Of a DNA stretch of 64,000 bases, positions 28,160-59,270 are shown one piece after another. The stretch is from Pisaster brevispinus (Eukaryota > Echinodermata > Asteroidea > Forcipulatida > Asteriidae): positions 62,001 to 126,000 of the forward strand of contig JAMKCF010000013.1 of the NCBI GenBank assembly GCA_023634235.1, read 5' to 3'. The notes below the pieces were generated by a model. It ran no database searches. It saw nothing but the letters and a program-made list of their open reading frames with translations, and had not been told where the DNA came from. Numbering within the stretch: the stretch's first letter is position 1; every line of letters starts with the position of its first letter. Position numbers and translations under genes: made by a program.

Positions 28160-28369
28160 CTGTCAACGAAATAAATTAATTTGCGTCACAACTTCAAATG
28201 CAGACATTAAAAAGTTGAATCTTTCTAACGAGGATAAATTATATCAGAATTATGCAAGTGCATTGCAGAAAATCTAAAGCAATTCAAAGGCAAAACCATT
28301 TTTTTTTTAATTGCAAGCTGTTTTATATTTCCTCGATATTGTTGTAGGGGCGTTCTAGGGTTTGGGAGG

Positions 28370-29036
28370 TTTGTTTGTTTCTTTGTTTGTTTGATTTGGG
28401 AGTGTTGGGGTTTGTTTGTTTGTTTGATTTGGGGGGGTTGTTTGTTTGTTTGTTGGGGTGTTGGGGTGTTTGTTTGTTTGTTTGTTTGTTTGTTTGTTTG
28501 TTTGTTTGTTGGGGTGTTTGTTTGTTTGTTTGTTTGTTTGTTTGTTTGTTTGTTTGTTTGTTTGTTTGTTTGTTTGTTTGTTTGTTTGTTTGTTTGTTTG
28601 TTTGTTTGTTTGTTTGTTTGTTTGTTTGTTTGTTTGTTTATTGGTTTGTTTATTTGTTTGTTTGTTTGTTTGTTTGTTTGTTTGTTTGTTTGTTTGTTTG
28701 TTTGTTTGTTTGTTTGTTTGTTTGTTTGTTTGTTTGTTTGTTTGTTTGTTTGTTTGTTTGTTTGTTTGTTTGTTTGTTTGTTTGTTTGTTTGTTTGTTTG
28801 TTTGTTTGTTTGTTTGTTTGTTTGTTTGTTTGTTTGTTTGTTTGTTTGTTTGTTTGTTTGTTTGTTTGTTTGTTTGTTTGTTTGTTTGTTTGTTTGTTTG
28901 TTTGTTTGTTGGGGTGTTTGTTTGTTTGTTGGGGTGTTTGTTTGTTTGTTTGTTTGTTTGTTGGGGTGTTTGTTTGTTTGTTTGTTTGTTTGTTTGTTGG
29001 GGTGTTTGTTTGTTTGTTTGTTTGTTTGTTTGTTTG
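28370..29036. repeat. long TTTG microsatellite in the 5' UTR intron of gene A
   Basis: About 670 bases of (GTTT)n, broken by TTGGGGTG interruptions near both ends and one ttattggtttgtttatt variant near 28,638. It lies in the intron between the 5' UTR exon and the signal exon. Several long reading frames here are only translations of the repeat. Confidence 0.97.
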
Positions 29037-33639: not shown

Positions 33640-36600
33640 CTATATGTTTCCATACACGACGTCAACGTTCAAATACATCTGTAAGGCTTCGTAGATCAAC
33701 TTGTACTGCTCCTGAACAAATCAAAAAGGAAGGCATCAAAACAATGCATTATTTTGTTTTTCATTTGCAACTCATTCTCCAGTCCTCTGAATGAAAAATA
33801 TTTCGATCTGGTTGTACAATTGTTGTTCACAGTTATTGGCGATGACTTTGCATGCAATGACTGTGATGTCTGGCACTGACCGGCACGGCATGATAACAAT
33901 ATATCAACCCTTTAGAGATCAAAGCCTGCTCCACACAGCCCCTTTAAGATCAAGCTCACAGCACAGTTTCATAAATCTGTATAGCAGAAAATGTGGCTTA
34001 AATTTGCACCGGGATACCAGTTGCAAATTGTAATTTGGTAGGTAACCTTATTCTGGCAAGCAAAATTGGGCCACGGTCTCCGTAGGTTGCAAGGTGGATT
34101 TGAGGAACAGAGAGTACCAGTCATATAGATTAACCGCAAATGAAACAATTGTGTTGCCAAAGTAAACCATGCTCAGCATGATGCCCTAACGGTAAAGTCA
34201 GCTTACCAGTGACTGCACCAATCCATGACGTGAGACTCTGAGTTTCTTGACAGCCTGGAAGACATCTACCACATTCTCAACACCCAGTCTCTCTATGACA
34301 TTAAGGAGAGCGCAGAATGCTCCACTGGCGCCCTCACCGTCACTGTCAAACACAAAAACCATCTAAAAAATGTTTTGAGCTGTGGTTTACAGAGAAAAGC
34401 TTTTTTTCTTTTGTCTGTAGTTAAAACACAAATATTCCTATCATCTTAATACAAATTGCAAATATTCTAGTAATTTCTTCTCTGTTTATATGTTAATAAA
34501 AAAAGTACTCATGAATAAGCAATAGAAATAATTTTTGCAATTGAAATTATGCAAAGATATCAGTCATGTCTACAAACTTTTGATCAAGACTTCATCAATT
34601 GTATGGGTGAGACTGTTATGATCGTCATCTATTTACATGTAGGTTGTCGTGGCATTACATTTTGACAAGAATGTGCAAATGAGTCAACCAAAACTTGATG
34701 ACATTAAAAAAAAATTGTTAAGACTTTGCTTATTTTGAAAACTAGCGAAAGAAAATAACCAAACACCATACATGCACTGAATTGTAGTTCGGTCGTCTTT
34801 ATGTTCATGTTGCCACTCTTTAACGGCTGTGACCAACTCCACGATGGATTTTGGTGATGAAGGTACGCCACCAACAGGCCAGTTCAGTAATTGAAGGTGA
34901 CAAATCAGACGGGATTCCTGAGTTCCAATGACAAGAATGAAACAAAAACTTACAGTGTCTGTTCCTAACTTTAGTTATTGCAAGCACAGTTAGTGCTACG
35001 ACACAATGCAAATCCGTTGTAAATGCGCCTACGCACTTTCAAACTTTCTGAATTGTTTGCAAAATACACTGTTTTTGCTTATGTAATTGTCTGCTATTGA
35101 ACGATTTATGAGACTGCACCTGACCGATAGAGGTTGGACTCACTGATGCTGTGTCCTGCCCAAGTGCTCCAGGCCTGGAATCTCAACTTTGAGAGGGCAA
35201 GGTCATTTTAAACTTTTCAAAGGGCACTCATCAATGGAAAATCTTAAAGTTTAAACGAAACTTGTGTAGGGGCACCAAGGAAAAGACCTTGAGCAATATA
35301 GACTTTGACCTCCTTGGCCTCCCTGCAACTCCAGTGGTACTCTGTGGGAGTATCTCCTTCAGGAAGGCTCTAAAGGCTGTTTACCACCACACCTGAGGCC
35401 ATGTCTGAATTAGCGGCTACGGCTACTTGAACAAACATTGAAGCATTTGATACCCATAGCAACAACATTAGCAAGAGCAACAGCCACAGCCGCAATGACC
35501 AATCAGACAGTCTTAGTTTCTAGACTGTTTCTTTACTATGCAAGGTTTCAATGATTAGTTCTAGCTTTATACCTGATCGTCATCTTTTGCCAGGGATAGG
35601 TAGCGTATGGTGATGTTTGGTCCCACTTTATCAGTAGACTGTGTAGTGACTGTCAGACTGCCGTATGTTGCAGAGCCTGTCTCTGGCCAGTACTCAACAC
35701 ATGTCTGTGAGAAATAAAACAAAAAAATTACAAAAAGGGTTCTTCTCACCATCTAACCCTGTTGATGGAAAATTTACTTAGCACCAATATTAACACAATT
35801 CAGGTGTACAGTTAAAATAAGCATAACAAATCCTGGATTCACTTTTTTCATCATGCTGGTAGAAATATTACTAAGCGCCCATTTTAACACAAATCAGGTG
35901 TACGTTAAGCATAGAAAATCCTGGATTAAGTTTGTTTCAAATAAATTAAAAGTAAACAATTTACAATAAAACACAAGTAATTTTATAAAGTAAACATCTT
36001 CGTAATAAATTTTCAAAATTTATTTTCAAAAGGAACCACACAAGTGAATAATTTTCAAATTCGGTAAGTACACTTTCAACTTACAGAATCTTTTTTATTT
36101 AGTGCATTCAACATGACGATGCAAGTAGACTTGTAGTCATAGACCATCCTCCACATGTCACTGATGGTGTGGGGTAAGGGCATCTGGGTGGCAATGTACT
36201 TCCCCTTGGAACTAGGACTCTGTAAAATCACAAAGTTGGAAGACAAATTTATGATTTATGAAAGTGTAATGAGCTTTAAGGAAAACTATGTCGTTGTTTT
36301 TGGTACATACATGTTATTGTAAAAGAGATTTTGAGCATATCATGCTAATTTAGATTTACAATTAAAAAAAGCAATGGTGATTTACGGGTCTTGTTTTTTT
36401 TCAACTTTGTATTTCATATGTATTCTGGGGGATTGGTATGATGTAAACTTTAGAATCAGTGAGCTTTCAGATGAAAATATTTCTTTGGAGGATTGGTACT
36501 GGTTTGAACTTTAGAATCAGTGAGCTTTCAGAGGGAAATATTTCTCTGGAGGATTGGTACTGGTATGAACTTTAGAATCAGTGAGAGTTCACATGGAAAT

Positions 36601-37209
36601 ATTTCTCCAGATGATTGGTTTTAAAGAAGGACAACTCAAATAAGTCACCCAAGTATTCTGACTTACATTGAGGAAGCTGGCATTGATGTAGTTGTTGGAT
36701 CTGTCTTTTCCTGATGACAACAAGTGAGGTCGGAACAGATCAACTTGAACAATAAAATGTTAATCGGTGACATTACTTTCACTGTTTGGTGCTTCATCAG
36801 ATCATACAAGGAAAGCTTACACAGAGAATGCCTAGAGCTGGTTCAACCAAGCTTTAAATCAGTAACAGTGCGGTTCCAAGGTAACTTCCAATAAAGGTCA
36901 ATTCAAGGAAACAAATACAACTACAGTGTGGGACAAGTCTCTTTAAATTTAACCGAGACACTATACATTCCAACATGTGGAAATATTAATAAAAGTGATA
37001 TTTTAAGGGCTTAAACAACACATCATATTGCAGAAAAAAATTACTTGGCTGAACAATACACAAAACCTTTTTCCTGTAACGTCATTTATAAAATTAACTA
37101 AAGCCTCACCTGGTAGTTTGTCTGGAAATCTGTTTTTCTTAACATTTCCTTGTTGCTGCGCCCCTTTAAATTTGTCAGGGTTCGGAATATTGGTCACAAA
37201 GTTCAGATT
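33640..37209 (-). CDS. gene B PTP domain D2, pseudophosphatase, and C terminus
   Basis: Exons 37209-37110, 36743-36667, 36219-36085, 35704-35573, 34917-34772, 34342-34207, 33711-33640. [10 protein letters not shown] and the degraded signature C-I-D-G-E-G-A-S-G match gene A. The penultimate exon ends CTG where gene A has CAG. Ends VYGNI and TAG. Confidence 0.85.
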
Positions 37210-40200
37210 CTGTATTTAAAGACAATAAACAAATAGTGCAATCAGGGTATGTTAAGTGCTTATTTCAGATGTCATATTACTACAGTAGAGATACCGACTT
37301 CTTGCAAACAGTGAGATTTAGTACAACAATCCTTATGCCTTGTGCTACACAAGGAAAAGGACAAATTGTCTTGACATGGTTTATGGTGAAGCTTCTTGGC
37401 CAGTTTCAATATTGCATTCAGATTGAATGTCTCTGCAAAGAGTTTGTCACATAAAGATGTAACTAAGGAAAAAACAAAGAAATAACTTTTTTATGCCTGA
37501 TGCACTTATGACATCAATGAAACACTTGTCATGAAAAGTTGGTGCACAGTCTACTCAGTTTATACTGAAATACAGAACTAATTAATGAGACAAAAATGAT
37601 GAAATGAGACCGTCACCTCAAACTCTAGCTGCAGTTCTGTCTTCCCACTGCCCTTTGTGACCTTCTTCAAGGCAGTCAGCTTGGAGCGAAGCTTTTCTGG
37701 TTTAATGCTGGTGTCACCACATATAAACAAGTCAATCAAGACATCAAAGATGAACTCATACTGGGCCTGTTTGGATTGAGAAAGAACTTCACTAGCAGGC
37801 CTGGTATTTCATCTTTGAGAGGGCAAGGTCAATTTCATTTTGCAAACGACACTTCCATTGTAAAAAGCTTAAAGTCTTCAGGAAACTTTGGAAAGAGCAC
37901 CATGGCCAAGACCAGGGCCATGACCTCTGTGTAACTCCAGGCCTGTAGTATAGTCGGTGGTCTAGATGCCCATTGTCAAGAGGTGCGTTCTGCGTTATGC
38001 AAAAGGGTCAGTAGGAAGCTTTGAACAGCTTCTGAAAATTAAGTAACAAGCTTTCAACGTTTTGGCTTTTGGACATTGTGCTACGAAACTTTAAAAACTT
38101 CACAGTGAAATAAAACACGAAGTGTTTAATACCATACTGATGTTTGTTAACTAAACCTTATGTTAAGTTCATATGCGTTTTATCATCGTCCACCAAATTG
38201 TTGTTTACTTTTTGTAAGCTTTCTCCGATGCGATTGTTTTATTTCTAACTTTTATAGGTACTATTTAATAAGACAATGGACAGAACTTGTACAAATGACC
38301 TAAAATAACTTAATGTATCTAATTTACCGATGTTTGAATCATCTTCATCCGTTTGTCTCTCATGCCACAAGCAAAGTTCCAGATATCAACTCGAACTTCT
38401 CCCTTGGCCTGGTCCAACATGGCGTCCAAAACCAAAAACACCCCGGTGCGGCTGATTCCAGCACTACAAAGTAACATAAACAATTATGGCACGAACATCG
38501 CATGATACCAAAATAGAGACTTAAAATTCTGATCAGTCTGGGGAAGAACACATGATAAACTACCCAACAAAAGGATCAAACAATACTATGCAGGCTAGGG
38601 ACAACAAAAGGAATCATGTTATCCAACACATAAAAAGACAGGAACTGGAAAAAGACATTATGAAGAAAAAAAATGAGGGAGAGGAAGACGGATCAAGTTC
38701 GTCAATCTGGAAGGATTAAATTAAACCAATATCAGACAGGATTTAAACAGATGGCTATAAGTTGACTTAGAAATATCGGCAGGGGACAAATTACAGCAGA
38801 TGTGACGTGGACTAGTGTCCCACAATCTCTGAAGACGAGGGGACGGGAAGTGAATTAATACGTCTGTGAGAGCACACAGATGGCAGAACGTGAGCGTGTC
38901 AAGATGACGAGGGTAACGAAAAAACAGAAAACATCTTCGTATCCCCATGCACGAGGCCAAAAAGAATGAGCGTGTCAAGATGAAGAGGCTTGTGATGACA
39001 AATGTTGTTTCTAAGAGATTCAGACTCGGAGCTTTCTCAAACTGTGTAAACACTGAGTAAATCCAACATAAAGAAATCTGCTTGTGCTAATTTGTTCATC
39101 AACTTATGCTTGCTCAAAGTCTTGTTTTTACATTTGTGTTTGAAACAAACTCATTTGATTTTGGGTTGAACAAAGAAGTTGACTAGAGCATGTGACCTCT
39201 GGACTAACATGCCGGTGCTCTATGAACTAAGCTATCTAGTCCTTATGTCCGTGGTCTCCCCCATCAGTTTCTCTTGTGGTTTGAAACAACCCTATTTAAG
39301 CTATACTAATGGCGTGCAAACACAAAAATACCAACCTGCAATGAATGATCATCGGACCAGCATTCTTGGGGTTGTACTCCTTTACCGTTTTGACAAAATT
39401 CACCACTTTGATGGGATCTTGGGGCAAGCCCGTATGAGGCCATGTTATGAAATGATACTGACGAACGTGTCTGGTCCAATCATCCTAGGGTGTTATAAAA
39501 AAAAATTTTGAGAGTTACTAAACGTTTCTTTAAGGCTATATTAAAACAAAAACAAGATAATGTCTACTTAGCAAAGTTTGTTTGGGTTGGCTTCAACGTA
39601 AATAAGCAATTTACTTCATTACCTGCAATTTCAGATTTATCGTAAAATCTCGGACGACGTAATCTTCATGGGTTTCTTCCGTTTTCAAAGTGACAACATA
39701 ATCACCATAGCATGCTGTTTTGTCTGGCCAATACTTCTCACATTTTTCCTGGAATAATTTTAAAATGGAATAAAGCAAACACCGAAAAAAAGAAATCAAA
39801 GTTAAATATGTCTTCTTCAAGTTGGTCACAAATTGAACAATGCAGCTTGAATTACCTTGACTCCTTCTTGTAGGTTTGTGAGCATGACAATCTTAGCGGT
39901 ATTCTCCTGCCATATCATCCTCCACATGTCACAAACGGAAGCCTTGGTTGGACCTAAAATTGTGATATATAAATTATTATGAGATGTACAGTGAAAAGGG
40001 TTTTAAACCACTGAATAAATCCAGTTATGATCAATAATTATTTTACATTTCTGGTAATGAAACCATGGATGCCCTTAAAGTGAATTTAGTCATTGTAGCC
40101 AGAAACACCCCGGGGGTTAACCTTTACTCTTCAGATATAAGTGTCCTGGGTTGCTTTCATGCACACCAATCCCAGTACACGGGACTTACAACTTCATGTC

Positions 40201-43200
40201 CCATTCGAAGAACACATGAATTATGGTAGAGAATCTTGCCCAAGACACAAATGCCAAAACCAGGGTTTGAACCCACACTAGAGCGTGAGTCCGATGCTCT
40301 AATCCGCTCGGCCACGACACGCCACAAATATGGAAACATTATTTGCCAAAGTTTTCAGTTTTGATACCTTTTTGTAGTTTAAAGCTCCAAGATAAGTTGC
40401 AAAAGTTTGTTAATAATTGACTCACCTTGGCTGGCTATGTACATGTTCGGTTCTCTCAAACCCTGTAATAGTGAGCAGAAGAGCAAAAAAACAGGTTACA
40501 TTATGTCTGCATTTTAACAGATATCGTCAAAAACTGTCTTATATCGTTTTTTGGGGGGTTGGTTATTGGACTGAAAACAAAGCGTCTTAAAGTTAATCCA
40601 CCATACTTGGTTTAAGTTCACTACTGCTCAGGGGAGTTTCCCGCCTTTTCCAGTTCTTTCTCAAACTTAGAGTGGTCCATCATGGATTCTTTACAGGCAA
40701 TTACAGGGACCACTCAGAACAGAAACAGATCATTAGGATTAACTTACATCCATGTAACTTGCGTTCACATAATCCGAGTCTGGTTGATTTGGTAGTTTCT
40801 CAAGCACAACGCGAGAAAAATCATCTGTGGTAGAATCAAATCAATGCAAGACCATGAAATTGAAATATTGTCTAGTTATCTGATCTGATACTAACCTTAT
40901 CCCGAGGCAACGTGAGTGGAAGATGAAAAAGGGGTGGACAGAGGAAGAGATAGGAAGAAAACATCAAAGAGTGGACAAAACTAGAGTTTGCCGACTCACA
41001 GAGGGCAGTGGAGGACAGAGAGGCATGGAGGAAGATTGTTACCAACAGAGGGCTTTAAAGGACAAAGAGGCATGGAGAAAGAGTGTTGTGAAGTCATCAG
41101 TGGCGCCCACGTCATTTAACGTGTTAACACCTCATCTGGCATGAAGTTGTTGACGGAGAGAGCATTTCAGATTATAATGTAAAGACAAGTTATGCAATAC
41201 AAACAAAAATCGTTAAACTCACAAGGAATGATGTTAGCATAACGGTTCTTGTCCTTGTTCTTGTCATCTTTTCCTCTTTTACATGAATGATGGTCGGCAT
41301 CGGGCAAACTCTAAACATTGAAAATAAATTGTAAAAAAAAGGAAACAGCTTGATATTCCTAATTACATGGAGGCAATAGCTCTTCGTAGGTCCTACTGAT
41401 GACATCACCACTTTACAGAAGAATGGGAAACCATTGTGTCTCTGTCGGAATTGCAGTACCCAGCTTACAGCACTTCAGCAATGCCCTAAACAAACCTTGA
41501 CATCATCAGTACAGGGGTCTATTAGAGCCACATAGACCCATTGAAGAGCCACTTACATCTGGCAGTTAACACATAAATTAGCTTATCACATAAACATTTT
41601 GCTCAGCATAATCGTTAGCGTGTGCCCAGGCAGTCAAGTGCACCGGGCTCAATTTTTGGGGTAATAATAAAGGATACTTTTAGGGACATTCTTGGTGTAA
41701 AAAAGCGCACAATAAATTCACATCTTGTTATTATTACAGAACCATCATCATCATGACTCACCTCATAGTCAAACAGAAACCCATTGCCTTCTTTGTACGT
41801 TTCCTCCTTCTTCTTGCTGACATAATCTTTGAACTCTGACAAAGGAATCGGAAAAGGAGCCGTAAACTGCTTCTTCTTGTTAACCTGCTTTGGTCTGGCT
41901 GGTGCAGTGGCTGGTGCAGCAGCTGGTGCAGTGGCTGGTGGGGTTCCAGTAACGACTTCATAGGCAGCATCATCATATGGATTTTCTAGTCCTGCAGAAA
42001 GTTGTTTTTTGCTTGCTTGCACTCGAGCTGATAAAACAAATAAAACATTCAAGAAATGTTTCGCTTTGATGTTGTCAACAAAAATAGTGTGCAGAATTTG
42101 TTTATAATGTATGTTTTAATTATTTTACTTTATTTTACTTATTTTATTTTCTGTTGTAGTTTAGATGCTCACATCTCAGTGTTTCGTAAAATAAAGCCCT
42201 AACATGACCTTTTTGTTATTAAACTCGCTGCACTTCTGCCGTTGACGGCATTTCAAAATGACACTTTTGCCGTTGATGACATGTCAAAATGAAAAACTAT
42301 TACGTCGTCGTAAAGTGTTGCTTTGCATGCCAAAAAAATAGCTTCACACAAAACAGGTTTCCCATGAATAAAATTTTCTCGATGAATAATGTGAGAGAGC
42401 TTTCTCTGAATTTTACTGAAAAGCAGCAGAGAAAGATGTTTACAATTTTAAATTTTACAATTAAACACTGCCATAATCTCATATGATCTAAAACTTATTG
42501 TTGTCATTGACAAAAAAAAGTTATCATATAGATGAGCATTGTCAACTACACATCTCACCTTACCAAGGTTTCATATTAATTATCAGTTAATACAAATCGT
42601 ATGGATAGAACTTAAACAAACAATGTAAAAAAAGCAGTGGCAACAAGTACAACTTTTTGGGGGCACGTGTGTACCTTGGAGAACTGTGTTCACACTAAAC
42701 TGAATATTTTGTTTTAAAAATCAAATTAAATTCGACAAAAGCAAGCAATAGATAGGAACTGTGTTCTTTGTTTGTGATTGACACACAAGGATTACAGTCA
42801 TTGCTGAGGGAAAATGTCTGAAAATAGGATCCAAAATGAACAAGATGTTAAAGTAGCGACATTTCAACATTTTAGCAATTCCTGGAGTTCTACGTTTCAA
42901 GGAGCTTCTGTATGGGAGCAACACTCATCAGCACTACATACAGAAGCTTTGTGAATCAATGAGCAGGATTTCTTTGTAGTAACAGAAAATGACTGCTATG
43001 TTTTTCGTCAGGCATACAAAGGCTGGAAATCAGATTAAAGTGTGAAACTTAACTCGTTCTTGTAGTCAAATCTACACCTTATTTTGTTTACAAGACAGGT
43101 TTCCTTAAGCTTTCGAGCTCATCAATAAAGTTCACTTATAAGGCATACTTGCTTTCATTACCGTAAATATAGAATACTTATAACAGGGTGGTTAGTTATG

Positions 43201-46200
43201 ACCTACCATTTGCAGCGTTGAAATGTCTACGGTCCCCTGAGCTGTGGTTAAGCCTTTTATTTCTCCTGTCAAAGGTACAGTTACCAGAAATACACAAAAA
43301 ACATTACCACCCACTAAACAACGGTTAATAGCAGTTATTGGTTCATTCATTCTTTCATTCATTCATTCCGAAATGGTTTGTCACTACCATGTTTGTCGAA
43401 AACACAAGCTGAATTGTATGAGTTACAGTAAAAACAGTAGACTGCTTAACTTGTTGAAAGCAGCTCTACGATGTTGGGCCCCTATTTCATGAAGCTGCTT
43501 GAGCACAAGTGTTTGCTAAGCACCACAACATTATGCTTAGCAGACTAAGGTTACTAGTCAAAATGGCCCTCATGTACCCTCTGTAACTGACTGACATCAT
43601 GCTAATTTCTGCTTAGTAAATCATTGTTAGGCAACATTTTTGGCCCATTTTCCCTGTCATTATCACGTAACTAAATTGTGACAATAAAAATTACCTTTTT
43701 TTGAAGATCAAAGCAGCTATAATACAAATCAAGACAAGCAGCATCAATGGAACCACAATCGCAGCTACCGGTGGGCTTGCACTTTGTGGCACTGCCGAAC
43801 AAAGATTATATTGTTTGAGTTTTGAAACAAAGCGATTTTTTTTTCTTGTAATTGTTTTTATGTTCATGCTAACATCATCGACATTTAAAGAAAGATAATG
43901 ATGTGTTAAATTTGTATGTAAAATTTATGACATTGACAAATAATTAGTCCAGGATTTCAGTTTTAGTCAAAAGCCAGCTGCTCAATTCATTGTGAGTTTT
44001 TCCAATCGAGACAAACAATTTTAATTGTTTCTGAAACTTGGACAATAATGTGACTCATAATGTTACCTTATTACTACATGATATTTACTCTTGTGGCGAA
44101 TGATAGTGAATGGAAACGGCCAGATTTCAACGAGGGATTACACTCAGTGATAATTTGCACCAACAAAAAGCATTCATTTTATTATTTGTTTTTTAACTCA
44201 TAACTCATGACCCTTGTCATTTGAAGAAGAAAAAACACAATAAATACAAAGCAGGCATAGAAACTTTGTCCACCCACACTCTGAAAATTCTAAAAACACC
44301 TAGTAAACAAGTTTTCATTCAAGGCCAAAGTAGTTTATGATAATTTTTTTACAAACTTGGACAATAATGTGACTCATAATTCTACCTTGTTACTATATTA
44401 TATTTACTAATGTGGCGAAGCTGAGTGAATTGAAAAAGCCGGATTTTTCCGAGGGACTAGACTCAGTGATAATTTGAAAAAACATTCAACATTTGTTTTA
44501 TAACTCACCCAAAGATCCTTGTCATTTAAAATTGTTTTCACAATAAATACAAAACAGACATGGAAACTCGTCTACCCCACCCTCTCAAAATTCGAAAAAA
44601 CTCCTAGTAAACAACGTTGATGACTCCATGTAGACAAGCACCGCCCTTGTCAGCCGTGACACATTTACCTTTGACCTTGCCTCTTTTGGACAAACAAGTG
44701 GAGAATGATTGCGTTTTTGGAAATGACGCTATACGAAGCGTCCAAAGTGTCCTATAATTCAATGTAGGACTCCCATAATAAGTTTTGTTGTGTCGCAGCA
44801 GTTTTCATAGTAAAATAAAGGATGTCACGTGACGGGTGTTCCACCAATCAAATGACAAGGATCGGTGAGTCCTATGTAATCGACATGATGCATTAAGTGC
44901 ATTTTGTCTGGTATCCTAGGAATGATAGCTTTTATTCTCATTTCACATAAAAGAACCATACTTTTTTTTGCTTCCTGCCTCAGTTTGAATAGCCTGAGTA
45001 GCAAAATTGTCACAATCTGACCAAGATGAGTTATTAAGCAGTAAATTACCTTGAACTCTGAATGGCTCACTCCACTTAACGGCATAAATCTATAATAAAA
45101 AAATTTAAAATGAAGAGAGATGAACATCACATTTTTTAGCTTGGATCAAACTGATGTTTATATGAAACCCAGCAAGTCATATTACCAGACATTATTCAAA
45201 TCCATTTCGCAAATGGCTTATTGGCAATCATAGCATAGAGTTACAGCCGCATGTTGCGTAGGTGCAAGGGATTGTTTGTAAAAAAAATAATTTTTAAACA
45301 CAAGAGATAAAAGGCTCACCGATTGAGAAATCCTACTGACTGATCCAAGGTAGATGTCATACTGAGTGTTGCTTTCCAGGGGTTTGTTTTCATTACTTCC
45401 CTGTGTTTCTCCGTCACCCACAGTGAATGTTGCAGGGAGATCCTTCTTAGGTAATTCTGCTGCTACATAATCAAGAGTTGGTCCAGTGGATCGTTGATAC
45501 CTCGATCCCCTGGTGTCCCTTCTAGGAACTGTCTTAACCTGCCGTACACCAACTTGCAGCCCTCTACACAACACACAAAAATGGTCATTGAGGAAGTAGT
45601 AACATTTCTGATTTCATTGGTTCAAGAACAATGTTGATACTTTCGTGAGCAAGTTAATTTCTTTCAATACCACACAGATGCAAATTTTAAAACTGAACAA
45701 TATGGATCACTTAACAGCACAAGATGAATAAGGCAATGGTGAATGTTGGTGGAGGGTGTTCTATCGATTGACTTTAAGAATTGAAATTTGAAATGCTTGT
45801 CAATCTAAGTAACACAAAACAATTTTGCTGAAAAGGGCTAATCAAGAGGTTATTATTTGACTCTTAAAAGTTATCCAGGTCTTGGATGTTACAGGGTTAA
45901 CATTGTTAGCATTACTTCAACTTACGTAATGTACTTTGACGAAGACGGAAGATTCAAAGCTATGGTGACTGTAGAAGAAGTCAAACCTGAGATATCTTTT
46001 TGGAATAGCTTGGTTGGAGCGGGAATATCTGTAAAGATCAAAGAAAAAAGTACCTTGGGAACATTCTCTATCCGAAGAATCATAAGACAGCATCTCAAAT
46101 GTCAGAATGGCTGGAAAGTTCTAATTGGATCAGTTAAGTATTCCAGCAGGTGTACATTGACCAGTCCATTTGACTGCCAGAGCGATCCGTTGGAACTTTT

Positions 46201-49200: not shown

Positions 49201-52200
49201 TTAAATTTGGCTAATGGCCTTGGAAAATGATCATCAGAAACAAAGTAAAACATTAGAACCAATGCAAGTTGCAATTAGAATGTGGACAAATCGGCTTGGT
49301 GACCTCCCAACGGCTCAATAGAGGCCCAAATAGAACCAAAAAATAATATTGTGATGAACTGAGCAGCTGCGGTTGAGCCTTGTACAGGGCTTGAACGTCA
49401 GCAATTTTTATCCGCACAACTTTTTAATATTTGTCAAAATCAGCTATGTGGAATCACATATTATTGGGCTTTCAGATTACATCAAACCTACACAAAACAT
49501 TTTAACAGCTGTGTGGTAAACTTTTACATTTAGGACAGACAAGCAAAAAGACAACGTCCGGCAGACAGACATAAATCAGTGTCACATATGCTAACAGCTA
49601 CTACATGCAGCAGCTTTAACCACAAGGCAATCAATCAATCAAAAGTAATTTACATAGCGCCAAAATCAACCGTTTGCTCTTTTAAGCGACGAGGCACAAA
49701 CCGAATGGTAAGTAAGACTGCTTGAACAGGTGAGCTTTGAGGAAAATTGGAGAAAAAAAACTGTCAACTACCAGTATCGCTTTTAAAAAAACAAGTGATA
49801 TCAGACTTCAAAATAAACACTTCATTATTTTTACAGTACAATTTTCCATTATTTGACCACTTTATCGTACACTATTTCAATTTGTACTTATGCTGAATCA
49901 TTTTCATTCTTCGAGGTCAGCTACCATGTTTAACATGGCTGTTCATTTAAAAAGTTTGTTTGGAAATGCAAGATTTCGATTTTTAAATAAATACCAAGAA
50001 TAAAGACAACAAATTTGAGCGGTCAGACTGTTCACTGTTTACTTACTTTGGCAGTTTTCACCTCTAAATCCTCCTTGACAAAGTACACCAGTCGGGCATG
50101 CACCAGAATCTCTGTCACAAGCTCCACCACCGGCACAATGACACCCCTGGGCACAATTGACTCCAAACCACCCATCAGAACAGTCTGCATAAAGGAATGA
50201 CCATGCTGGTTAGAGACAATGTAAATGCTGTAAATGTAAAACTGATTAGTATCAATCTAAATGTTTTTTTAATTTTTTGCTCAGATTTTTTGTTAGACTG
50301 CAGAGAGAGTACTGCTCAGAATTATTGTAGAATTTATGGGTGACTTTATAAAAAGAAATATTTAAGATAAAGGGATGTGCATTTGTATCAAGTCTAAACT
50401 CACCCTCACAATTCTCCCCTGTGAAGCCTGATCTACAATTACTGCCTGAAGTGCAAGTACCAACTGAGCTGTTACAAGCTGCATTTCCACATCGACATTC
50501 CAAATTGCAACCTGCACCATACATACCATCTGGGCATCCTAAACAAGAGAAGCTTCAAGTTTGTATACTTACAATAGAAATTCAAAAACTCAAAAATATC
50601 AAAGAAAACCCCCAAAACTGTTCTACTATCACCTTGGTGTTAAAACAAGAATTGAAAATCAGACACTTTAGAAAATCATTAATTTACAAGAATGTTTTGT
50701 ATGAGTTCTACAAAAATACAACTAGGGTTCCAACAAAGTTATCATATCACTGACAATTTAAATAATCTGGGAACCTTAAGGACTTTAATCATTCTGCCAT
50801 TTATATGTAATGTCGCCCTCAAGCGGGACTACCTGGTGACTCCAATCTTCTCTGTTCTCTATGCACAGGGAGATAACTCTGTTGCGGTCTCCGCACCAGC
50901 ATCACACCTGAGGACACCCACATAGCTTGTTCTCTCTCTGCCCCTCAGCCTCAACCCATGAGTTGATTCCCATAGCTATTCAAATACACATTTACTTACT
51001 CAATTGTGATGATTTTTTTAACAGCAAAAATTTTAATAACACTAGGTTGTTGTTCACTAATTTCTTTTTAAAGATATTCAAAAGGATCTGTATTCATACT
51101 TTGTTTGCAAGTTGAGCCCGTGAAGCCAGCTTCGCACGTACAGCCAAACGGATCAGGAAGACACATGTGATTGCCAAGGCAACCATTAGCATAGTTACTG
51201 GTGCATCGGATACCACAGTCTTGACCAAAGCAGTTGTTGTTATGCACTGAGGAAATATTACACCAAATTGTTAGTAGCTGTGTACAATATTGCCAACACC
51301 CAACCCCTTCTTAGTCGTAATATCTGAAGAAAGATGGATGGAAAGATCCAAAACAATACCTCAACATATTTATTTGTGTTTGTTGTATTTTGGTAGATGT
51401 TGGTTCTTGTGGTCCCTTTGTATATTACACGAACATAAAACCTTCGTATTGACAATTAAATATCCTTTAAGTCATCTTAACTAACCTATTCACATAGTCT
51501 CTGCAAGTTTTTCATGTTGGTTTACCTTAATACTATGATTCAGAAAACGTTCTTTATTTTACCTGCTCGACACCGGACACCGCTAAATCCTGGTGGGCAG
51601 ATACAGTCACCAGTCTTGTCGTCACACTGACCGCCGTTATAACAAAATGGACAGTTATTATCGCATGATGGACCCCACTTGTTGGGAGAGCACTCTGAAA
51701 AAGAAATGTATCAAACAGGTCTTTACTACTATCAATTCAACTAAACTCAAACCAACACTAAAACAACTTGTTTTAATAGACAATGGATGCCACGGTCATG
51801 CTATCAAGCAACATGTAGTTGGAAGCTGTTATGTAAAGGGTGGGTGTGTGACTAGACATTGCATTTTGTGGCAGTGGAAGAAACTGGTCTAAAGAGTTGT
51901 TTAACCTTCCACAGTTGAATGGTTTTAAGAAAGGTATTGATGCGATCTCAACTTCACTTATAATTGATGAGGACATAGATTGCCAAAATGAGTTTGATCC
52001 AATCAATACCCATTAAAAAAAAAGTCAATTATTTGAATCGAAAACATAAACAAACTAACCGCTGGTCAATTCAGTGACACAAATTGGTAGGCAAAACAAC
52101 TTGTTCAAACCAATTTGAGTAGTTTGATTTTCAGAATAAAGAAGCTCTCTTTTATTACAGAATGAAAAAAAGAAATCATCTGGAATCTTACGTCTTACAA

Positions 52201-55200
52201 GGAGATTCATGAGTGCATGGTTCTGTAGATGATGTCTACCAACAATGAAGCATTCATAGATACCAGCATGATTGAGTTGAACATTACGGATAGTGATGCT
52301 TGATTGGCCATTCCATTCAGTGACGTCAACACCATTGTGTCTCCATCGAAGCTCAGTCGGTGATCCGTAATGCTGTGTCATTGTCAATGTTACATCCTCT
52401 CCAGCACTCGTAGTCAAGGTGGATGAGGCTGGAGATACATCACCTACAATCAATAATAAGCTCAGTTGATAGACTGTTATATCACTGTGTCATTGTCAAT
52501 GTTACATCCTCTCCACCTCTCGTAGTCAAGGTGGATGAGGCTGGAGATACGTCGCCTACAATCAATAATAACGTAGAGACACGGAAAGGAGGCTGGTCCT
52601 CTATTTAAAAAGGACGCGCATTCACCCAAATACAATAAACACAAAATCCATCTGATACACAAATCATTTTAAAAAACAAACGTTTGTACTAAGAATTATT
52701 CCAAGCCATTCAAACTAATGAAAAAAACAATGTATTCCCACAATAATAAGCAATTAAGTGACAAATCGGACACCATGGCTAGCCATTTTGATTGCGCAAT
52801 CACGGCAAGGCGTTGGAGATTTCCTTGATATTCGATTCCTAACCGGGAGAGGACCCATTGCTTTGTGCACAGCCCATTCGATTTGTACATGAGCAACACA
52901 TGTAAATGTAATTCCAACGTGGGTTTAGGGTTTTCGTGAGAATGCATTAGATGGAAAAAAAATTTAACCATCGTGTTCTTTATGAAATTTTATTAGTATA
53001 AAAACACAAATTTTTTTACTGTGACGTCATCAGGTATCGAATTACGGTAATCCAAAGCTTATTCCTTTAAAAAATCATATCTCCTGAACCACATGTCGTA
53101 AAGTCGTATAGTTAGTGTTGTTTTGTAGCTTACAACAAATGCAAAAGTTATTTTTAAAGGTGACCTCACTATGACCTTTAATTCGAGTCGAAACAGGAAG
53201 CTAAAATCTTTGAAAAGTCTTATCTCCTGAACCACAAGTCATAAGGCGTAACGTTTGTGTTGTATTGTAGCTTACAATACTTGCGACATTCCATGTACTG
53301 TGATAACCTCACTTTGACCTTTACTTCCAGTCCAAACAGGAAGCTCAAAACTTTAACAAATCATATATCCTGAACAATATGCCGTAAATTCGTCACCGAC
53401 ACCACAAAGTAGCACGCACTGTTAAACCAGCAAAAAAATAACAATCAGAGAAAACGGCCTCTGAAGTTGAATTTTTTTTTAGAAACCCACTTTCCTTCAA
53501 AACTTCAAAGTATTTACATTTAAGTTTTTCAAAATTAATCTTATTTTGACTCATTTGCATAATTAATTAAGAAACTAGACACGAGAGAAGTTCCGTGCTA
53601 CTTTGTGAAACCCAAAAAGTGCGAAATATGTCTTTTTGCGTTTTCACGAAGTAGCACGCGCCTATACTACAACACAGCATTGTGTGTTACTTTGTGAAAA
53701 CTAGGTCAGCGCGCGCGCGTTCACACAAGTTGCGTGCTACTTCGTGGAAACGTATTTACCTCCCTTTGACTTGAAAGTTGGGTGTTACTTCGTGAAAACA
53801 AAAAATGCCACAACTGTGCAAAAGTTGAAAACACTCATTAGCTTAATCAAAAAAGTAAAGCTGTCTGAGCTTTGAAACTTCATGGAATTGTAGGTCTTCA
53901 TGCATTATCAACAGAAATGTAAAAAAAAAATTAAGTGTAAACAAAAAATTCCTTACTTCGTGGTGTCACTGACGAATTGGTACATGTATAATGTTGTTGT
54001 TGTATTGTAGCTTACAACAATTGCGACATTTCATGTACAGTGATAACCTCACTTTGACCTCTGCTTCCGGTCGAAACAGGAAGCTAAAAATCTTAACATA
54101 TCATATCTCCTGAACCACATGTCATAAATTGGTACATGTATAATGGTTTCGTTGTAGTGTAGCTTACAACTGCGACATTTTAAGTATAATCATGACCTCA
54201 CTTTGACCTTTACTTCCGGTCCAATCAGGAAGCTCAAAACTTTAACAAATCATATCTCCTGAACCACATGTTATAAAGTGGTAATGTTTGTGTTGTAACT
54301 GGCAACACTTGAGACATTTTATTAAAAACGATGACCCCACTGTGACCTTTACTTCCGGTCTAAGACAAGACCCGATTTTGTTAAACTATATACACTGTGG
54401 TGATCACTCTTGATAACAAGCATTCATTTCGAACAAGATTACACCATGAACACAAAATACAGATGAGTTCAAATCTTTGGAAAAAAAACTTTTAGGTCAA
54501 CAGAACGGAACAGCTTTGTGTTTGTTCACAAACACTTAATGTCTAGTTATTATTTGAAATTAGTATAAGACTTTTTACATAAGTGAAAACAAGAATGTTG
54601 AGTTTAAAAAGTGAGTTAAGGTGTCAAAGGTGTGATCTTGAGATATTAACACCGTTTGCCTTCTTAATGGCCAATTCTTGAATCGGTTTATTGGATCAAC
54701 AGTAATTAGAAGATGAAAAACACAATTCATTTATTTTAAAGTAACATGACAGCAGTTAGTAATACATGGTGTGTCCCTTACCGTGTTCACGCAAAACAAT
54801 TGTTGTTATCTTCACAGAGCCGAAGATACAGTTGTAAGCACCGAATCTGTTTGTCCTAATGGAGTCGGGCGTGTAATAAAGTCTGGCACTGGCAAAGTTA
54901 TGATTTTCCATATATCCTCCAGTTGGTAGATTACTGCCACTGCCAGTATCTAAGACACGCTCAAAGGAGACGGCTGCGCCAGTGTCACTACCACTTTTAA
55001 AGCCACCAATGAAATGTCGATTTGCCTCTTTGGCATAAAGTCCTAAATTGAAGCAGGTGAAATCAGGAACTGCTCCTAGTCAGAAAGAAATAAACAGTAT
55101 GATAAACGAGAAAAATATATATTTGAGCCTATTATAATTACTATATGTTGATATGTATATTCCATTGCTTGATGTGCACCTGTTGGTATGCTTTGTTTAA

Positions 55201-58200: not shown

Positions 58201-59270
58201 TTTTAACCAATACAAGAGTTTTTAGGGTGACTAACTTAACTCTGGTGTAAGTGAACAAATTCGACCGTGCACAATCAAACTTTGAGGAAGTACTTGACAA
58301 AATACAACACACACAATAATATATATCCGCTTTGGAACGTGATATTTGGCTTGCTTTGTAACAATTTCCCTTTTTTCACGCAATTCTTTTGGGGAACAAT
58401 CCAAGGCAAATAAATGCTTTCTCTTTGATTTTTTTGATAAACATCACCAAACAATCAACTTGATTTCTTAACGGCAACCAAACAGCCCCAAACACCCCGG
58501 CAAAGAGCAGTTTGTACGTGTATATTTACCAATGCAATTTAAAACTGTTTTTATAACACGAATGAAGAACCGGTTTGGGGTTTTTCCTTTTCCTAAACCA
58601 TATCCCTTTTCCTCGGGGTATTTTCCCAAAGTAGATGTCATGTTTGTCCGTATAGTTGTGTAGGAATTACTTTATAAAGAGTCCATTCCCCACGCCATTT
58701 ACTAATGCTTTTACTTAATTTAGCTTTCAATAACTAATCAACACTTCTGTTCGGTTGAAAAAGATAACATCTATTTTACTCTCGATGAAAAGTTGAAAAA
58801 TTGTACTCGAGTCCCGCCATAGCCGATTGCCATGTGGGTGTTTTTTTTTCTTAATAATTGAAACATAGAGTCACATCCTGCTAAAAAACGATCCCTCTGC
58901 TGCAGCTTCTCACATGTTGTATTGTAGGACTGTTACAAGTTGAACGGCTTCTGACTGCCACTCCGAACAGAAATATTATAAAATAGGGAAACATACAACA
59001 TTAGGGCTATAGATTGTTCAGTTGGTACAGTGCCGGCACGTTAATCCCGAGGTAACAGGTTCAAATCCCGCTGTAGCCAATTTGTCTCTGTTCAACTCAA
59101 TATGTTTAATGTATTTGATAGAACTTTAATGTATGGAAGACGGTGAAAAACATCCATGTCATAAAAATCGTCTTACCTTGTGAAGTGTGTGGTAGAACTA
59201 GAAGGACCAGCAGGCCAAGTAAAGCACATCTTGACGCGGCCGGAGAGTCTTTCACCCCGCGTCGATTCAT
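33640..59270 (-). CDS. receptor with Tie-like ectodomain and tandem PTP domains, gene B (complete)
   Basis: Predicted 1,420-residue type I receptor. Coding exons in transcript order: 59270-59177, 55075-54782, 52443-52192, 51694-51563, 51246-51100, 50538-50404, 50184-50047, 49061-49008, 48077-47796, 46791-46676, 46503-46293, 46028-45926, 45563-45320, 45089-45050, 43791-43695, 43241-43207, 41991-41762, 41310-41223, 40824-40748, 40462-40426, 39953-39856, 39748-39623, 39484-39336, 38463-38328, 37766-37617, 37209-37110, 36743-36667, 36219-36085, 35704-35573, 34917-34772, 34342-34207, 33711-33640. All junctions have AG/GT and agree in phase; total 4,263 nt with one terminal stop. Ig-EGF modules resemble Tie/Tek receptors; the cytoplasmic part is a D1-D2 phosphatase pair. 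Catalytic residues are degraded in both domains, so signalling may be by binding rather than catalysis (inference). Confidence 0.85.
36420..36620. repeat. 61-bp minisatellite, about 3 units (copy B)
   Basis: Same repeat as in unit A, starting near 36,427, 36,487 and 36,547 with a partial end. Copy-number difference from unit A is clear by reading. Confidence 0.88.
37617..41310 (-). CDS. gene B PTP domain D1, WPD loop changed to WPH
   Basis: Exons 41310-41223, 40824-40748, 40462-40426, 39953-39856, 39748-39623, 39484-39336, 38463-38328, 37766-37617. Motif order as in gene [54 protein letters not shown]. The codon at the Asp position is CAT here and CGT in gene A, one transition apart, so the Asp was lost before the copies split. 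Confidence 0.85.
40918..41145 (+). pseudogene. LINE 3' end fragment (copy B)
   Basis: Counterpart of 9,610-9,830 with the same [20 protein letters not shown] pattern; inherited with the duplication. In unit B the foldback element that follows it in unit A is absent. Confidence 0.58.
41762..43241 (-). CDS. gene B juxtamembrane region (two exons)
   Basis: Exons 43241-43207 and 41991-41762. LENPYDDAAYEV, an Ala/Pro run (TPPATAPAAAPATAPARP) rearranged relative to gene A with total length kept, then the basic stretch and [12 protein letters not shown]. Confidence 0.75.
43695..43791 (-). CDS. gene B transmembrane exon
   Basis: Same membrane helix as gene A ([21 protein letters not shown] then KK). 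Confidence 0.85.
44036..44620. repeat. intronic tandem duplication (copy B)
   Basis: Same two-block structure as in unit A at 13,262-13,860, in the intron just before the transmembrane exon. Confidence 0.78.
45050..46028 (-). CDS. gene B membrane-proximal FN3-like domain (three exons)
   Basis: Exons 46028-45926, 45563-45320 and 45089-45050. Starts IPAPTKLFQKDIS, then [18 protein letters not shown] and [17 protein letters not shown]. The intron between the first two lacks the 710-bp element seen in copy A and shows the clean empty site near 45,907. Confidence 0.72.
46293..46791 (-). CDS. gene B fibronectin III domain 2 (two exons)
   Basis: Exons 46791-46676 and 46503-46293, aligned without gaps to gene A. 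Core motif [19 protein letters not shown]. Confidence 0.8.
47796..48077 (-). CDS. gene B fibronectin III domain 1
   Basis: Same domain as 17,770-18,069 but 18 bases shorter: [13 protein letters not shown], without the VQDPSK stretch, and in frame. F-strand [17 protein letters not shown] retained. Confidence 0.8.
49008..49061 (-). CDS. gene B Cys-rich linker exon
   Basis: Counterpart of the 54-base exon in gene A, reading SCPYGQIGINPNCSMCY. It bridges EGF module 4 and FN3 domain 1. Phase 1-1. Confidence 0.72.
49362..50046. other. intron of gene B deleted from unit A
   Basis: Left part of the 6,726-base block missing in unit A. A caatcaatcaatca run near 49,627 is the only notable motif. Confidence 0.6.
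50047..50184 (-). CDS. gene B EGF-like module 4 (absent from gene A)
   Basis: Phase 1-1 exon: CSDGWFGVNCAQGC, HCAGGGACDRDSGAC, CQGGFRGENCQ. Tie receptors usually have three EGF modules; here a fourth precedes the short Cys-rich exon. Its donor is AAA then GTAAGT, weaker at the last exon base. Confidence 0.78.
50404..50538 (-). CDS. gene B EGF-like module 3 (absent from gene A)
   Basis: Phase 1-1 exon: CPDGMYGAGCNLEC, RCGNAACNSSVGTC, NCRSGFTGENCE. Cysteine spacing fits the laminin-type EGF modules of Tie and MEGF proteins. Confidence 0.8.
51100..51246 (-). CDS. gene B EGF-like module 2 (absent from gene A)
   Basis: Phase 1-1 exon of 48 whole codons: NNNCFGQDCGIRC, CLGNHMCLPDPFGCTC, EAGFTGSTC. 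The phrase MCLPDPFGCTC is strikingly close to the second EGF module of Tie2, which has a CLPDPYGCSC stretch. This is the best single piece of evidence for Tie relatedness. Confidence 0.82.
51563..51694 (-). CDS. gene B EGF-like module 1 (absent from gene A)
   Basis: Phase 1-1 exon: CSPNKWGPSCDNNC, then CYNGGQCDDKTGDC, then ICPPGFSGVRC. Eight cysteines spaced as a laminin/EGF-like repeat. The order KWGP, NGG-C, TG-C-IC-PPGF closely parallels the first EGF module of Tie receptors (recognised from family knowledge; no search was run). Confidence 0.82.
52192..52443 (-). CDS. gene B Ig domain 2, Tie-like (absent from gene A)
   Basis: Exon of 83 whole codons: SAGEDVTLTMTQ, LRWRHNGVDVTEW, ITIRNVQLNHAGIYECF, ending LLVR. 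LRWRHNG and AGIYECF are the Ig C and F strands. It joins directly to an exon starting CSPNKWGPSC, the same Ig-to-EGF junction style (LIVR, then a Cys, then KWGP) seen in Tie2. No clear B-strand Cys is present. A 112-base tandem copy of its 5' end lies just upstream in the intron (about 52,485-52,571). Confidence 0.8.
52373..52571. repeat. tandem duplication of the 5' end of the Ig exon
   Basis: About 85 bases repeat with an offset of 112: 52,373-52,457 and 52,485-52,571. On the minus strand the second copy lies upstream of the exon and repeats the acceptor (TTGTAG) and the first ~24 codons. Confidence 0.85.
53075..54365. repeat. ~142-bp tandem repeat, about 5 units
   Basis: Units begin near 53,075, 53,217, 53,361, 54,101 and 54,250 with tcatatctcctgaacc and carry tgtagcttacaa and cctcactttgaccttta. 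The third is split by the element at 53,391-53,974. It fills the intron between the two Ig exons and exists only in unit B because unit A lost this region. Confidence 0.85.
53391..53974. mobile_element. inverted-repeat element inside a minisatellite
   Basis: Left end CGTCACCGACACCACAAAGT, right end (reverse complement) CGTCAGTGACACCACGAAGT. AATT flanks both sides (53,387-53,390 and 53,975-53,978), fitting a 4-bp target duplication. Inside, variants of GTGCTACTTCGTGAAAAC occur at least five times in both orientations, like subterminal binding sites. It interrupts the third unit of a ~142-bp tandem repeat. Superfamily not assigned. Confidence 0.8.
54782..55075 (-). CDS. gene B N-terminal Ig-like domain (absent from gene A)
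   Basis: A phase 1-1 exon of 97 whole codons starting AVPDFTCFNLGLYAKE and ending TTIVLREH. The Cys near the start and the late RFGAYNC, which fits the G-x-Y-x-C F-strand motif, suggest a divergent immunoglobulin fold. By position it corresponds to the first Ig domain of Tie receptors. Sequence support is weaker than for the next domain. Confidence 0.65.
55076..56009. other. first coding intron of gene B, right part of the block deleted in unit A
   Basis: Holds a TGCTTAGCA-type repeat near 55,850-55,990 and a G run near 55,446. No exon is supported. Confidence 0.55.
56010..56200 (+). mobile_element. tRNA-derived SINE, complete (unit B)
   Basis: Left part cttctgactggcacccct and tactggcaaaataagg, tRNA-like part with A box and B box, then tttctttgttcaaaccca. 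The acceptor stem does not pair well, so this is not a functional tRNA gene. Confidence 0.72.
58950..59107 (+). mobile_element. tRNA-derived SINE (copy B of 27,765)
   Basis: Same insertion inherited by unit B. The A box carries a 4-base insertion (tagattgttcagttgg), but the B box GGTTCAAATCC is better preserved than in unit A. Confidence 0.68.

What the first reader, a model, noticed from the sequence alone, without database searches (positions are those of the whole stretch)
33640..59270. Tie-like ectodomain joined to tandem phosphatase domains
Gene B encodes two Ig-like domains, EGF modules with KWGP, CPPGF and MCLPDPFGCTC phrases, three FN3 domains, a membrane helix and a D1-D2 PTP pair. 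The Ig-EGF-FN3 order is that of Tie/Tek receptor kinases, but the inside is phosphatase-like. All exon phases agree across the whole chain, so it is one gene, not two neighbours. This would be a receptor that could see Tie-type ligands or pair with Tie receptors while carrying an opposite or scaffold-type signal (inference). I know of no vertebrate RPTP with this layout.
Basis: partly seen in the sequence, partly recalled or inferred. Interest (0 to 1): 0.9.

Follow-up and report, generated by a model that had tools for sequence, protein, structure and literature searches.

The report
Tie-receptor outside on phosphatase inside
A starfish gene joins the outer part of a Tie blood-vessel-type receptor to a phosphatase instead of the usual kinase, and the same genome carries very similar outer parts on true Tie-type kinases, which suggests receptors with matching outsides and opposite insides.

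Summary
On the minus strand (59270-33640) 32 exons with agreeing phases encode one 1433-residue receptor: signal peptide, Ig1, Ig2, four EGF modules plus half of one, three FN3, membrane helix, PTP D1-D2. The Ig2-EGF block is Tie: human TIE2 at 3e-36, next other solved chain at 1e-4; the inside is RPTP (RPTP-alpha, 3e-147). The source is a starfish (80% to an Asterias amurensis protein auto-named 'RPTP T-like'). Gene B is not unique: 77 of 239 sequences collected here, gene B included, carry Tie module plus PTP, in echinoderms, hemichordates, amphioxus, spiders and a sea spider. New here: three tandem genes of the same genome carry gene B's ectodomain exons 2-11 and 13 and end in a Tie-type kinase; by identity (86%) and path the nearest block to gene B's is one of them, K3. 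Gene B's D1 lacks the WPD aspartate (WPH) and D2 the catalytic Arg, so it probably holds more than cleaves phosphotyrosine. Ligand and function are untested. Nine full-text searches aimed at it listed no description. A new variant of RPTP, in an apparent kinase/phosphatase paired-receptor family.

The parts
59177..59270 (-). gene B exon 1: start codon and signal peptide
   Evidence: conserved in P0001
54782..55075 (-). exon 2: Ig1
   Evidence: AlphaFold pLDDT 84, Ig fold
52192..52443 (-). exon 3: Ig2 (Tie-type)
51563..51694 (-). exon 4: EGF1 (KWGP ... CPPGF)
51100..51246 (-). exon 5: EGF2 (MCLPDPFGCTC)
50404..50538 (-). exon 6: EGF3
50047..50184 (-). exon 7: EGF4
49008..49061 (-). exon 8: half EGF
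   Evidence: also in gene A and K1-K3
47796..48089 (-). exon 9: FN3-1
46293..46791 (-). exons 10-11: FN3-2
45050..46028 (-). exons 12-14: FN3-3
   Evidence: Fn3_PTPRU
43695..43791 (-). exon 15: transmembrane helix
41762..43265 (-). exons 16-17: juxtamembrane
38328..41310 (-). exons 18-24: PTP D1 (KNRY, WPH in place of [13 protein letters not shown])
33640..37766 (-). exons 25-32: end of D1, PTP D2 (WPV, QCIDGEGASG: Arg to Ala), stop codon
1523..28088 (-). gene A: tandem paralogue with signal peptide, half EGF, FN3 x3, TM, D1-D2 but without the six Ig-EGF exons
19398..24861 (+). LINE-type retrotransposon (CCHC ORF1, endonuclease-RT ORF2; named by eye from the ORFs) in gene A at the place of the missing block

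Best explanation
Gene B is a starfish receptor-type protein tyrosine phosphatase whose ectodomain is homologous to that of Tie receptor kinases. It belongs to a large family in which one Tie-type ectodomain, whose Ig and EGF exons are phase 1-1, is carried on phosphatases and on Tie-type kinases in the same genome (shown by sequence). Most likely mechanism (inferred): kinase and phosphatase receptors with matching outsides meet the same ligand or the same partner at the membrane, so that the phosphatase branch damps or ends what the kinase branch starts, as VE-PTP does to Tie2 from a different ectodomain in vertebrates. Gene B and the neighbours that have lost the D1 general acid (WPH or WPR) and the D2 arginine act mainly by holding phosphotyrosine or by occupying ligand or partner (substrate-holding or decoy members), while the copies with WPD are presumed to be active enzymes.
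For: Gene structure. TIE2 3.3e-36 over Ig2-EGF3. RPTP-alpha/epsilon/LAR for the inside. Foldseek on the whole Acanthaster Tie-PTP P0024 puts the TIE2 ectodomain 4k0v first (3.3e-35) and RPTP-alpha second. 77 of 239 sequences carry both parts. Own genome: of 65 EGF1 loci (lower bound) the next same-strand domain within 60 kb is PTP in 33, kinase in 12, none seen in 20. K1-K3 carry ectodomain exons 2-11 and 13 with the same phases at spliceable sites (exons 1, 12 and 14 were not looked for), then a membrane helix and a kinase with GEGHFGEV, AAIKKL, HRDLAARN and DFGLSRGE; gene B's cytoplasmic part has no hit in those 105 kb. Gene B's block sits in one set with K2, K3 and the phosphatases P0001 and P0002 at 100/100. 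In Patiria P0054 (PTP) and P0053 (Tie-type kinase) share 61% over 638 ectodomain residues. Catalytic residues. PTPRU, a vertebrate RPTP with two inactive domains, is reported to compete for substrates (PMC7320164, abstract).
Against: No expression, ligand, binding or activity data. A missing WPD acid need not kill a PTP: plant PFA-DSP1 works without one (PMC9038691, abstract and passages), and a histidine might itself give a proton (inference). Inside the 100/100 set gene B goes with the two Asterias phosphatases (92/89), not with K2/K3, so the kinase/phosphatase exchange is not as young as the 86% to K3 alone suggests. A. rubens coelomocyte proteomics reports 'RTPPF-like', 'RTPPA-like' and a Tie-2-like kinase, but not which genes (PMC13409769, passages). 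The Ig2 stretch that in human TIE2 touches angiopoietin (recalled) is shorter and different in gene B (alignment), so angiopoietin itself may not be the ligand. dN/dS between genes A and B is about 0.4, also in D1, which is loose for a working enzyme. The database proteins are automatic gene models.
Confidence: 0.62

Rival explanations
1. An ordinary fast-expanding adhesion or immune RPTP family that happens to have kept a Tie-type ectodomain; the ectodomain binds microbial or self surface molecules and the resemblance to kinase receptors has no functional link.
For: Large tandem arrays (152 PTP exon matches, lower bound; 130 Tie-exon matches). Ig1, the outermost domain, is the most divergent: Ig1 dN/dS 1.0-1.1 against two PTP paralogues on few changes (6-8 synonymous), Ig2 about 0.75. 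Tie and no-Tie forms are mixed in the D1 tree (23 changes), though some no-Tie rows may be partial gene models.
Against: K1-K3 keep the same domain order and exon phases over the exons placed; K2/K3 against gene B have dN/dS 0.17-0.24 in Ig2 and EGF1-4, which speaks for constraint on the shared block.
Confidence: 0.4
2. Gene B is a decaying copy with no function of its own, on the way gene A has gone.
For: WPH in D1; gene A next door lacks the Ig-EGF block, with a LINE in its place, and is out of frame in exon 17 with the usual acceptor; partial Ig2 exon copy in intron 2.
Against: All 32 exons of gene B are open with canonical sites; the upstream neighbour at C13:131-133 kb has WPH too with open exons 23 and 24; dN/dS between A and B about 0.4, not 1.
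Confidence: 0.15
3. Two neighbouring genes (a Tie-like ectodomain gene and an RPTP) read as one.
For: Only that no cDNA was available.
Against: Phases agree across all 31 junctions, A. amurensis models align end to end, and the same join recurs in distant animals.
Confidence: 0.03

Closest known systems
Tie receptor kinases (TIE1, TIE2/TEK; starfish Tie-like kinases P0051, P0053, and K1-K3 of this genome)
   Same: Ig2-EGF1-3 block, EGF2 with CLPDP[YF]GC[ST]C, VR-x-C joint between Ig2 and EGF1, FN3, single membrane helix
   Different: Inside is tandem PTP, not kinase; a fourth EGF and a half EGF (K1-K3 have these too); no Ig found between EGF and FN3 (TIE2's third Ig is recalled)
R4 receptor phosphatases RPTP-alpha/epsilon
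   Same: Best solved relatives of D1-D2 (3e-147, 7e-133)
   Different: The two fish epsilon proteins P0176 and P0210 give no Tie-HMM hit; amphioxus relatives P0068, P0093, P0110 of that branch carry the Tie block
R2B phosphatases (PTPRT/K/M/U), the name given by NCBI's pipeline
   Same: Ig, FN3, TM, D1-D2; third FN3 resembles Fn3_PTPRU
   Different: No MAM domain (recalled as R2B's mark) found by Pfam; Ig-EGF block is Tie. The automatic name 'RPTP T-like' is misleading
PTPRU, a pseudophosphatase receptor (PMC7320164, abstract)
   Same: RPTP with impaired D1 and inactive D2
   Different: PTPRU-D1 is reported inactive through structural rearrangements of the active site; here the general acid itself is replaced and inactivity is not shown; ectodomain differs
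VE-PTP (PTPRB)
   Same: Phosphatase receptor that acts on Tie2 (PMC10815196, passage)
   Different: Its ectodomain is FN3 repeats (recalled); it does not share the Tie ectodomain

Membership tests
Tie/TEK receptor | Tie-type Ig2-EGF1-EGF2-EGF3 block | tested here: met
   TIE2 3.3e-36; vertebrate-Tie HMM 175.6 bits, Ig2 part 30.5, EGF part 108.7
Tie/TEK receptor | Cytoplasmic tyrosine kinase | tested here: not met
   PTP D1-D2 follows the membrane helix; no kinase family for gene B at E up to 1
Tie/TEK receptor | Ig3 between EGF and FN3 (recalled feature of TIE2) | tested here: not met
   exon 8 (half EGF) is followed by FN3-1 in exon 9; no third Ig in Pfam
Tie/TEK receptor | Binds angiopoietins | not testable with these tools
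   no binding data
Receptor-type PTP | Membrane helix followed by tandem PTP domains | tested here: met
Receptor-type PTP | D1 with catalytic Cys and Arg (HCxxGxxR) | tested here: met
   [10 protein letters not shown]
Receptor-type PTP | D1 WPD aspartate (general acid); usual, not strictly required for membership | tested here: not met
   WPH in gene B, WPR in gene A; WPD in 18 of 22 D1 copies of this genome examined
Receptor-type PTP | Phosphatase activity | not testable with these tools
   needs an enzyme assay
R2B (PTPRT-like, as auto-named) | MAM domain at the N terminus (recalled) | tested here: not met
   no MAM family among the 19 Pfam matches at E up to 1
Paired receptors (matching ectodomains, opposite insides) | Closely matching ectodomains on opposite signalling domains in one genome | tested here: met
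   K2/K3 kinases against gene B phosphatase
Paired receptors (matching ectodomains, opposite insides) | Common ligand and opposite signalling shown | not testable with these tools
   no functional data

The most novel reading that the evidence does not exclude
Invertebrate deuterostomes run a kinase/phosphatase paired-receptor system: one Tie-type ectodomain, made of interchangeable phase 1-1 exons, is repeatedly re-attached to a Tie kinase, an active receptor phosphatase or a catalytically crippled phosphatase, and the mix of insides sets the sign of the response to a shared ligand. Phosphatase Tie receptors may go back to early bilaterians (chelicerates, ambulacrarians, amphioxus) and have been lost in vertebrates, where VE-PTP now acts on Tie2 without sharing its ectodomain.
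Probability: 0.4. Interest if true: 0.92.

Novelty: new variant of a known kind. Interest (0 to 1): 0.78.

Why it matters
Kinase and phosphatase receptors are treated as separate families with separate outsides. Here the same kind of outside sits on both within one genome, so a single ligand could drive and oppose tyrosine phosphorylation. It bears on where Tie signalling came from before blood vessels, on why vertebrate Tie2 needs a dedicated phosphatase, and on how receptor families rewire output by exon exchange at the membrane. The starfish genes make it directly testable with recombinant ectodomains.

Tried and rejected
Generic EGF origin: rejected. EGF-only proteins P0023 and P0028 score 81.4 and 59.8 bits against 175.6; on the Ig2 profile, besides P0047, no protein of the 71 without the block scores above 9.7. 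No MEGF10/11 sequence as such was in the set.

Two merged genes or assembly join: rejected on phases and on full-length homologues.

Single ancient fusion inherited by all: not settled. In the D1-D2 tree (40 rows chosen by me) Tie and no-Tie need at least 3 changes; the amphioxus P0068/P0093/P0110 group goes with fish epsilon (100/99), the chelicerate Tie-PTPs with mollusc and brachiopod RPTPs without Tie block (99/96). No R1, R2B, R3 or R5 vertebrate sequences were in that set; P0047 (59.5 bits) was labelled Tie there and no-Tie. The D1 tree of 116 rows (quick) left out five near copies or broken models (P0011, P0041, P0042, P0046, P0048) and four proteins without a scorable D1. The Tie-module tree used 125 of 239 sequences (filters: 120 bits, coverage, organism typed in).

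Weakness of the genome count: 123 of 130 Tie matches were typed in (five on C6, one on C2 and one fragment on C13 left out), 32 of 70 kinase matches (those on C13 and C98, C13:13249647 left out), and the PTP matches that one search listed (its list is shorter than its 152 matches). A few weak Tie hits with stops are among the 65 loci; C235 may be another copy or haplotype of C13:131 kb. Searches scored only 150 candidates each.

exon 24 was found in 21 of the 22 D1 copies.

EGF1-4 values for the two PTP paralogues are void (exon 7 was matched to exon 4, exon 6 cut off or incomplete in the stretch); only Ig1 and Ig2 are used. They rest on few changes and do not show positive selection.

one chain named EGFR (9p9u, 335 bits summed over two stretches) ranks above the TIE2 kinase (284 bits) for P0053; RET and FGFR follow at 227.

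Fold matches of Ig1 are antibody V domains; TIE2 Ig1 was not in the listed rows, which shows nothing either way. Gene B was not folded whole; P0024 was folded instead (pLDDT 73, pTM 0.41).

Literature: nine full-text searches aimed at it listed no paper that by title or abstract start describes a Tie-ectodomain phosphatase; I opened four papers in part, not the rest. Subscription journals, among them a 2006 sea urchin phosphatase survey (recalled, not seen), are not held.

Full report
What is there. Gene B runs on the minus strand from 59270 to 33640. I placed 32 exons by hand at AG/GT sites; all phases agree and the joined frame is open for 1433 residues. Order: signal peptide, Ig1, Ig2, EGF1-4, a half EGF, three FN3, membrane helix, juxtamembrane, PTP D1, PTP D2. 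Exons 2 to 9 are all phase 1-1, so each can be lost or exchanged without shifting the frame. Pfam sees two PTP domains, FN3 and Ig2; Ig1, which Pfam misses, models as an Ig fold.

Whose outside. Against solved structures the Ig-EGF region finds three TIE2 sequences at 3e-36 to 6e-36 and then nothing better than 1e-4 among 24 matches. The alignment runs through the end of Ig1, Ig2 and three EGFs, with the same Ig2-EGF1 joint (LLVRQC against LIVRRC). A profile of 19 vertebrate Tie sequences gives gene B 175.6 bits; the best of 2000 shuffles reaches 26.2 and the best protein classed as lacking the block 81.4, on EGFs alone. The Ig2 part alone gives 30.5 bits; among those 71 proteins only the horseshoe-crab P0047 (27.0, probably a true relative) comes near.

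Whose inside. D1-D2 match RPTP-alpha (3e-147), epsilon and LAR best. D1 keeps [10 protein letters not shown] but has WPH where PTPs have WPD; D2 has QCIDGEGASG, Arg replaced by Ala, a loss shared by its closest starfish relatives. So D2 is very probably inactive and D1 should be slow (inference from the known role of the WPD acid; exceptions exist, PMC9038691, abstract and passages).

Who else has it. A protein search with the Ig-EGF region returned 28 proteins, 16 of them with a PTP domain and 4 with a kinase in their listed Pfam domains. The closest is from Asterias amurensis (80%), so the window is from a starfish. Searches with the sea-spider relative and with the phosphatase part (the best 120 of 261 and of 835 hits are listed) brought the set to 239 with gene B; 77, gene B included, carry the Tie module at over 90 bits together with PTP: starfish, sea urchins, sea cucumbers, a brittle star, crinoids, acorn worms, amphioxus, two spiders and a sea spider. 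None of the 77 is a vertebrate; unlisted hits were not seen. Pfam gives PTP in 28 of 28 chosen members, FN3 in 28, Ig_3 in 23, EGF_2 in 15. A fold of one of them, the Acanthaster P0024, matches the TIE2 ectodomain first and RPTP-alpha second.

Kinase and phosphatase share the outside. In the tree of 125 Tie modules the insides (phosphatase, kinase, other) need 24 changes. In Patiria a phosphatase (P0054) and a Tie-type kinase (P0053; TIE2 kinase 284 bits against 227 for RET/FGFR, with one chain named EGFR above both on two summed stretches) are sisters at 100/91 and share 61% over 638 ectodomain residues; P0183 and P0069 share 63% over 723. Amphioxus shows the same (P0093, P0082: 75% over 1371), with the caution that clustered genes there may be mis-joined models. 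Gene B itself aligns with the kinase P0051 in one stretch, 30% over 819 columns through the FN3 part.

The same genome. The window is C13:62001-126000 of a 550 Mb assembly. A search with gene B's EGF1-EGF2 gave 130 exon matches. Of 65 EGF1 loci, the next same-strand domain within 60 kb is PTP in 33, kinase in 12 and none seen in 20; of the 18 loci at least 80% identical to gene B's EGF1, 14, 3 and 1 (limits under Tried and rejected). I fetched the three kinase cases. K1, K2 and K3 (C13:9.23-9.33 Mb) each have ectodomain exons 2-11 and 13 of gene B at spliceable sites with the same phases; exons 3-8 of K2 and K3 are 81-94% identical to gene B's, those of K1 53-93%; exons 1, 12 and 14 were not looked for. 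A membrane helix and a Tie-type kinase with intact motifs follow, and no phosphatase hit. In the tree gene B's block lies in one set with K2, K3 and the Asterias phosphatases P0001 and P0002 at 100/100. By path and identity its nearest row is K3, a kinase (86% over 202 columns), but within the set it joins the two phosphatases (92/89) and K2 joins K3 (84/23). So the exchange of insides fell after the split from the Patiria line of this subfamily and probably before that from Asterias (inference).

Variation of the inside. Of 22 D1 copies of this genome examined, 18 have WPD, 3 WPH (gene B, its upstream neighbour, and C235, perhaps the same locus on another haplotype) and 1 WPR (gene A). The downstream neighbour at C13:28.9 kb keeps WPD. 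The family thus contains kinases, apparently active phosphatases and probably crippled phosphatases under one ectodomain.

The neighbour. Gene A (28088-1523) is 92% identical to gene B in the shared exons, exon 17 left out, dN/dS 0.44, but lacks exons 2-7. DNA alignment breaks at 49361 and 56088 of gene B, and the gap in gene A holds a LINE-type element of about 5.4 kb on the other strand. Exon 17 of gene A is out of frame with the usual acceptor; a downstream acceptor keeps the frame, so whether gene A works is open.

Mechanism. Shown: architecture, Tie and RPTP homology, matching ectodomains on kinases in the same genome, loss of catalytic residues. Inferred: that both kinds meet the same ligand or each other; that WPD copies oppose the kinases; that gene B holds rather than cleaves substrate. 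Precedents are VE-PTP acting on Tie2 (PMC10815196, passage) and PTPRU as a substrate-competing pseudophosphatase (PMC7320164, abstract). Starfish coelomocytes hold a Tie-2-like kinase together with RPTP F-like and A-like proteins (PMC13409769, passages); A. rubens models called RPTP F-like (P0013) and alpha-like (P0166) carry the Tie block here, but identity with the measured proteins is not shown.

Verdict. The finding is real and larger than reported. It is a new variant of a known kind (RPTP with a Tie ectodomain), which I met only under automatic database names, with a strong hint of a kinase/phosphatase paired-receptor system.

Noticed in passing
window 19398-24861 (+): LINE-type retrotransposon (ORF1 with CCHC knuckle, ORF2 with endonuclease and RT, named by eye) sits where gene A lacks its six Ig-EGF exons.
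   Followed up: partly
window 1523-28088 (-): Gene A, a tandem paralogue without the Tie block, WPR in D1, exon 17 out of frame with the usual acceptor.
   Followed up: partly
window 52467-52595 (-): Partial copy of the Ig2 exon in intron 2 just upstream of the real exon, with an early stop.
   Followed up: no
window 10396-15143 against 41163-45909: Genes A and B are 97.7% identical over 4.8 kb (second half of FN3-3 to the first D1 exon) but about 87-96% elsewhere, which may reflect local gene conversion.
   Followed up: no
window 4294-4733 and 36424-36619: Same 61-bp tandem repeat in intron 27 of both genes, 7.2 against 3.2 copies.
   Followed up: no
window 28369-29036: Long GTTT tetranucleotide array (166 copies) upstream of gene A, in a stretch with strong strand skew.
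   Followed up: no
P0002 (Asterias rubens): Database model joins the juxtamembrane exon directly to D2, without D1; another D1 loss or a model error.
   Followed up: no
P0066, P0126, P0063 (amphioxus, Acanthaster): Tie modules also occur in proteins without kinase or PTP hit, such as models whose listed Pfam domains include fibrinogen C or polycystin types.
   Followed up: no
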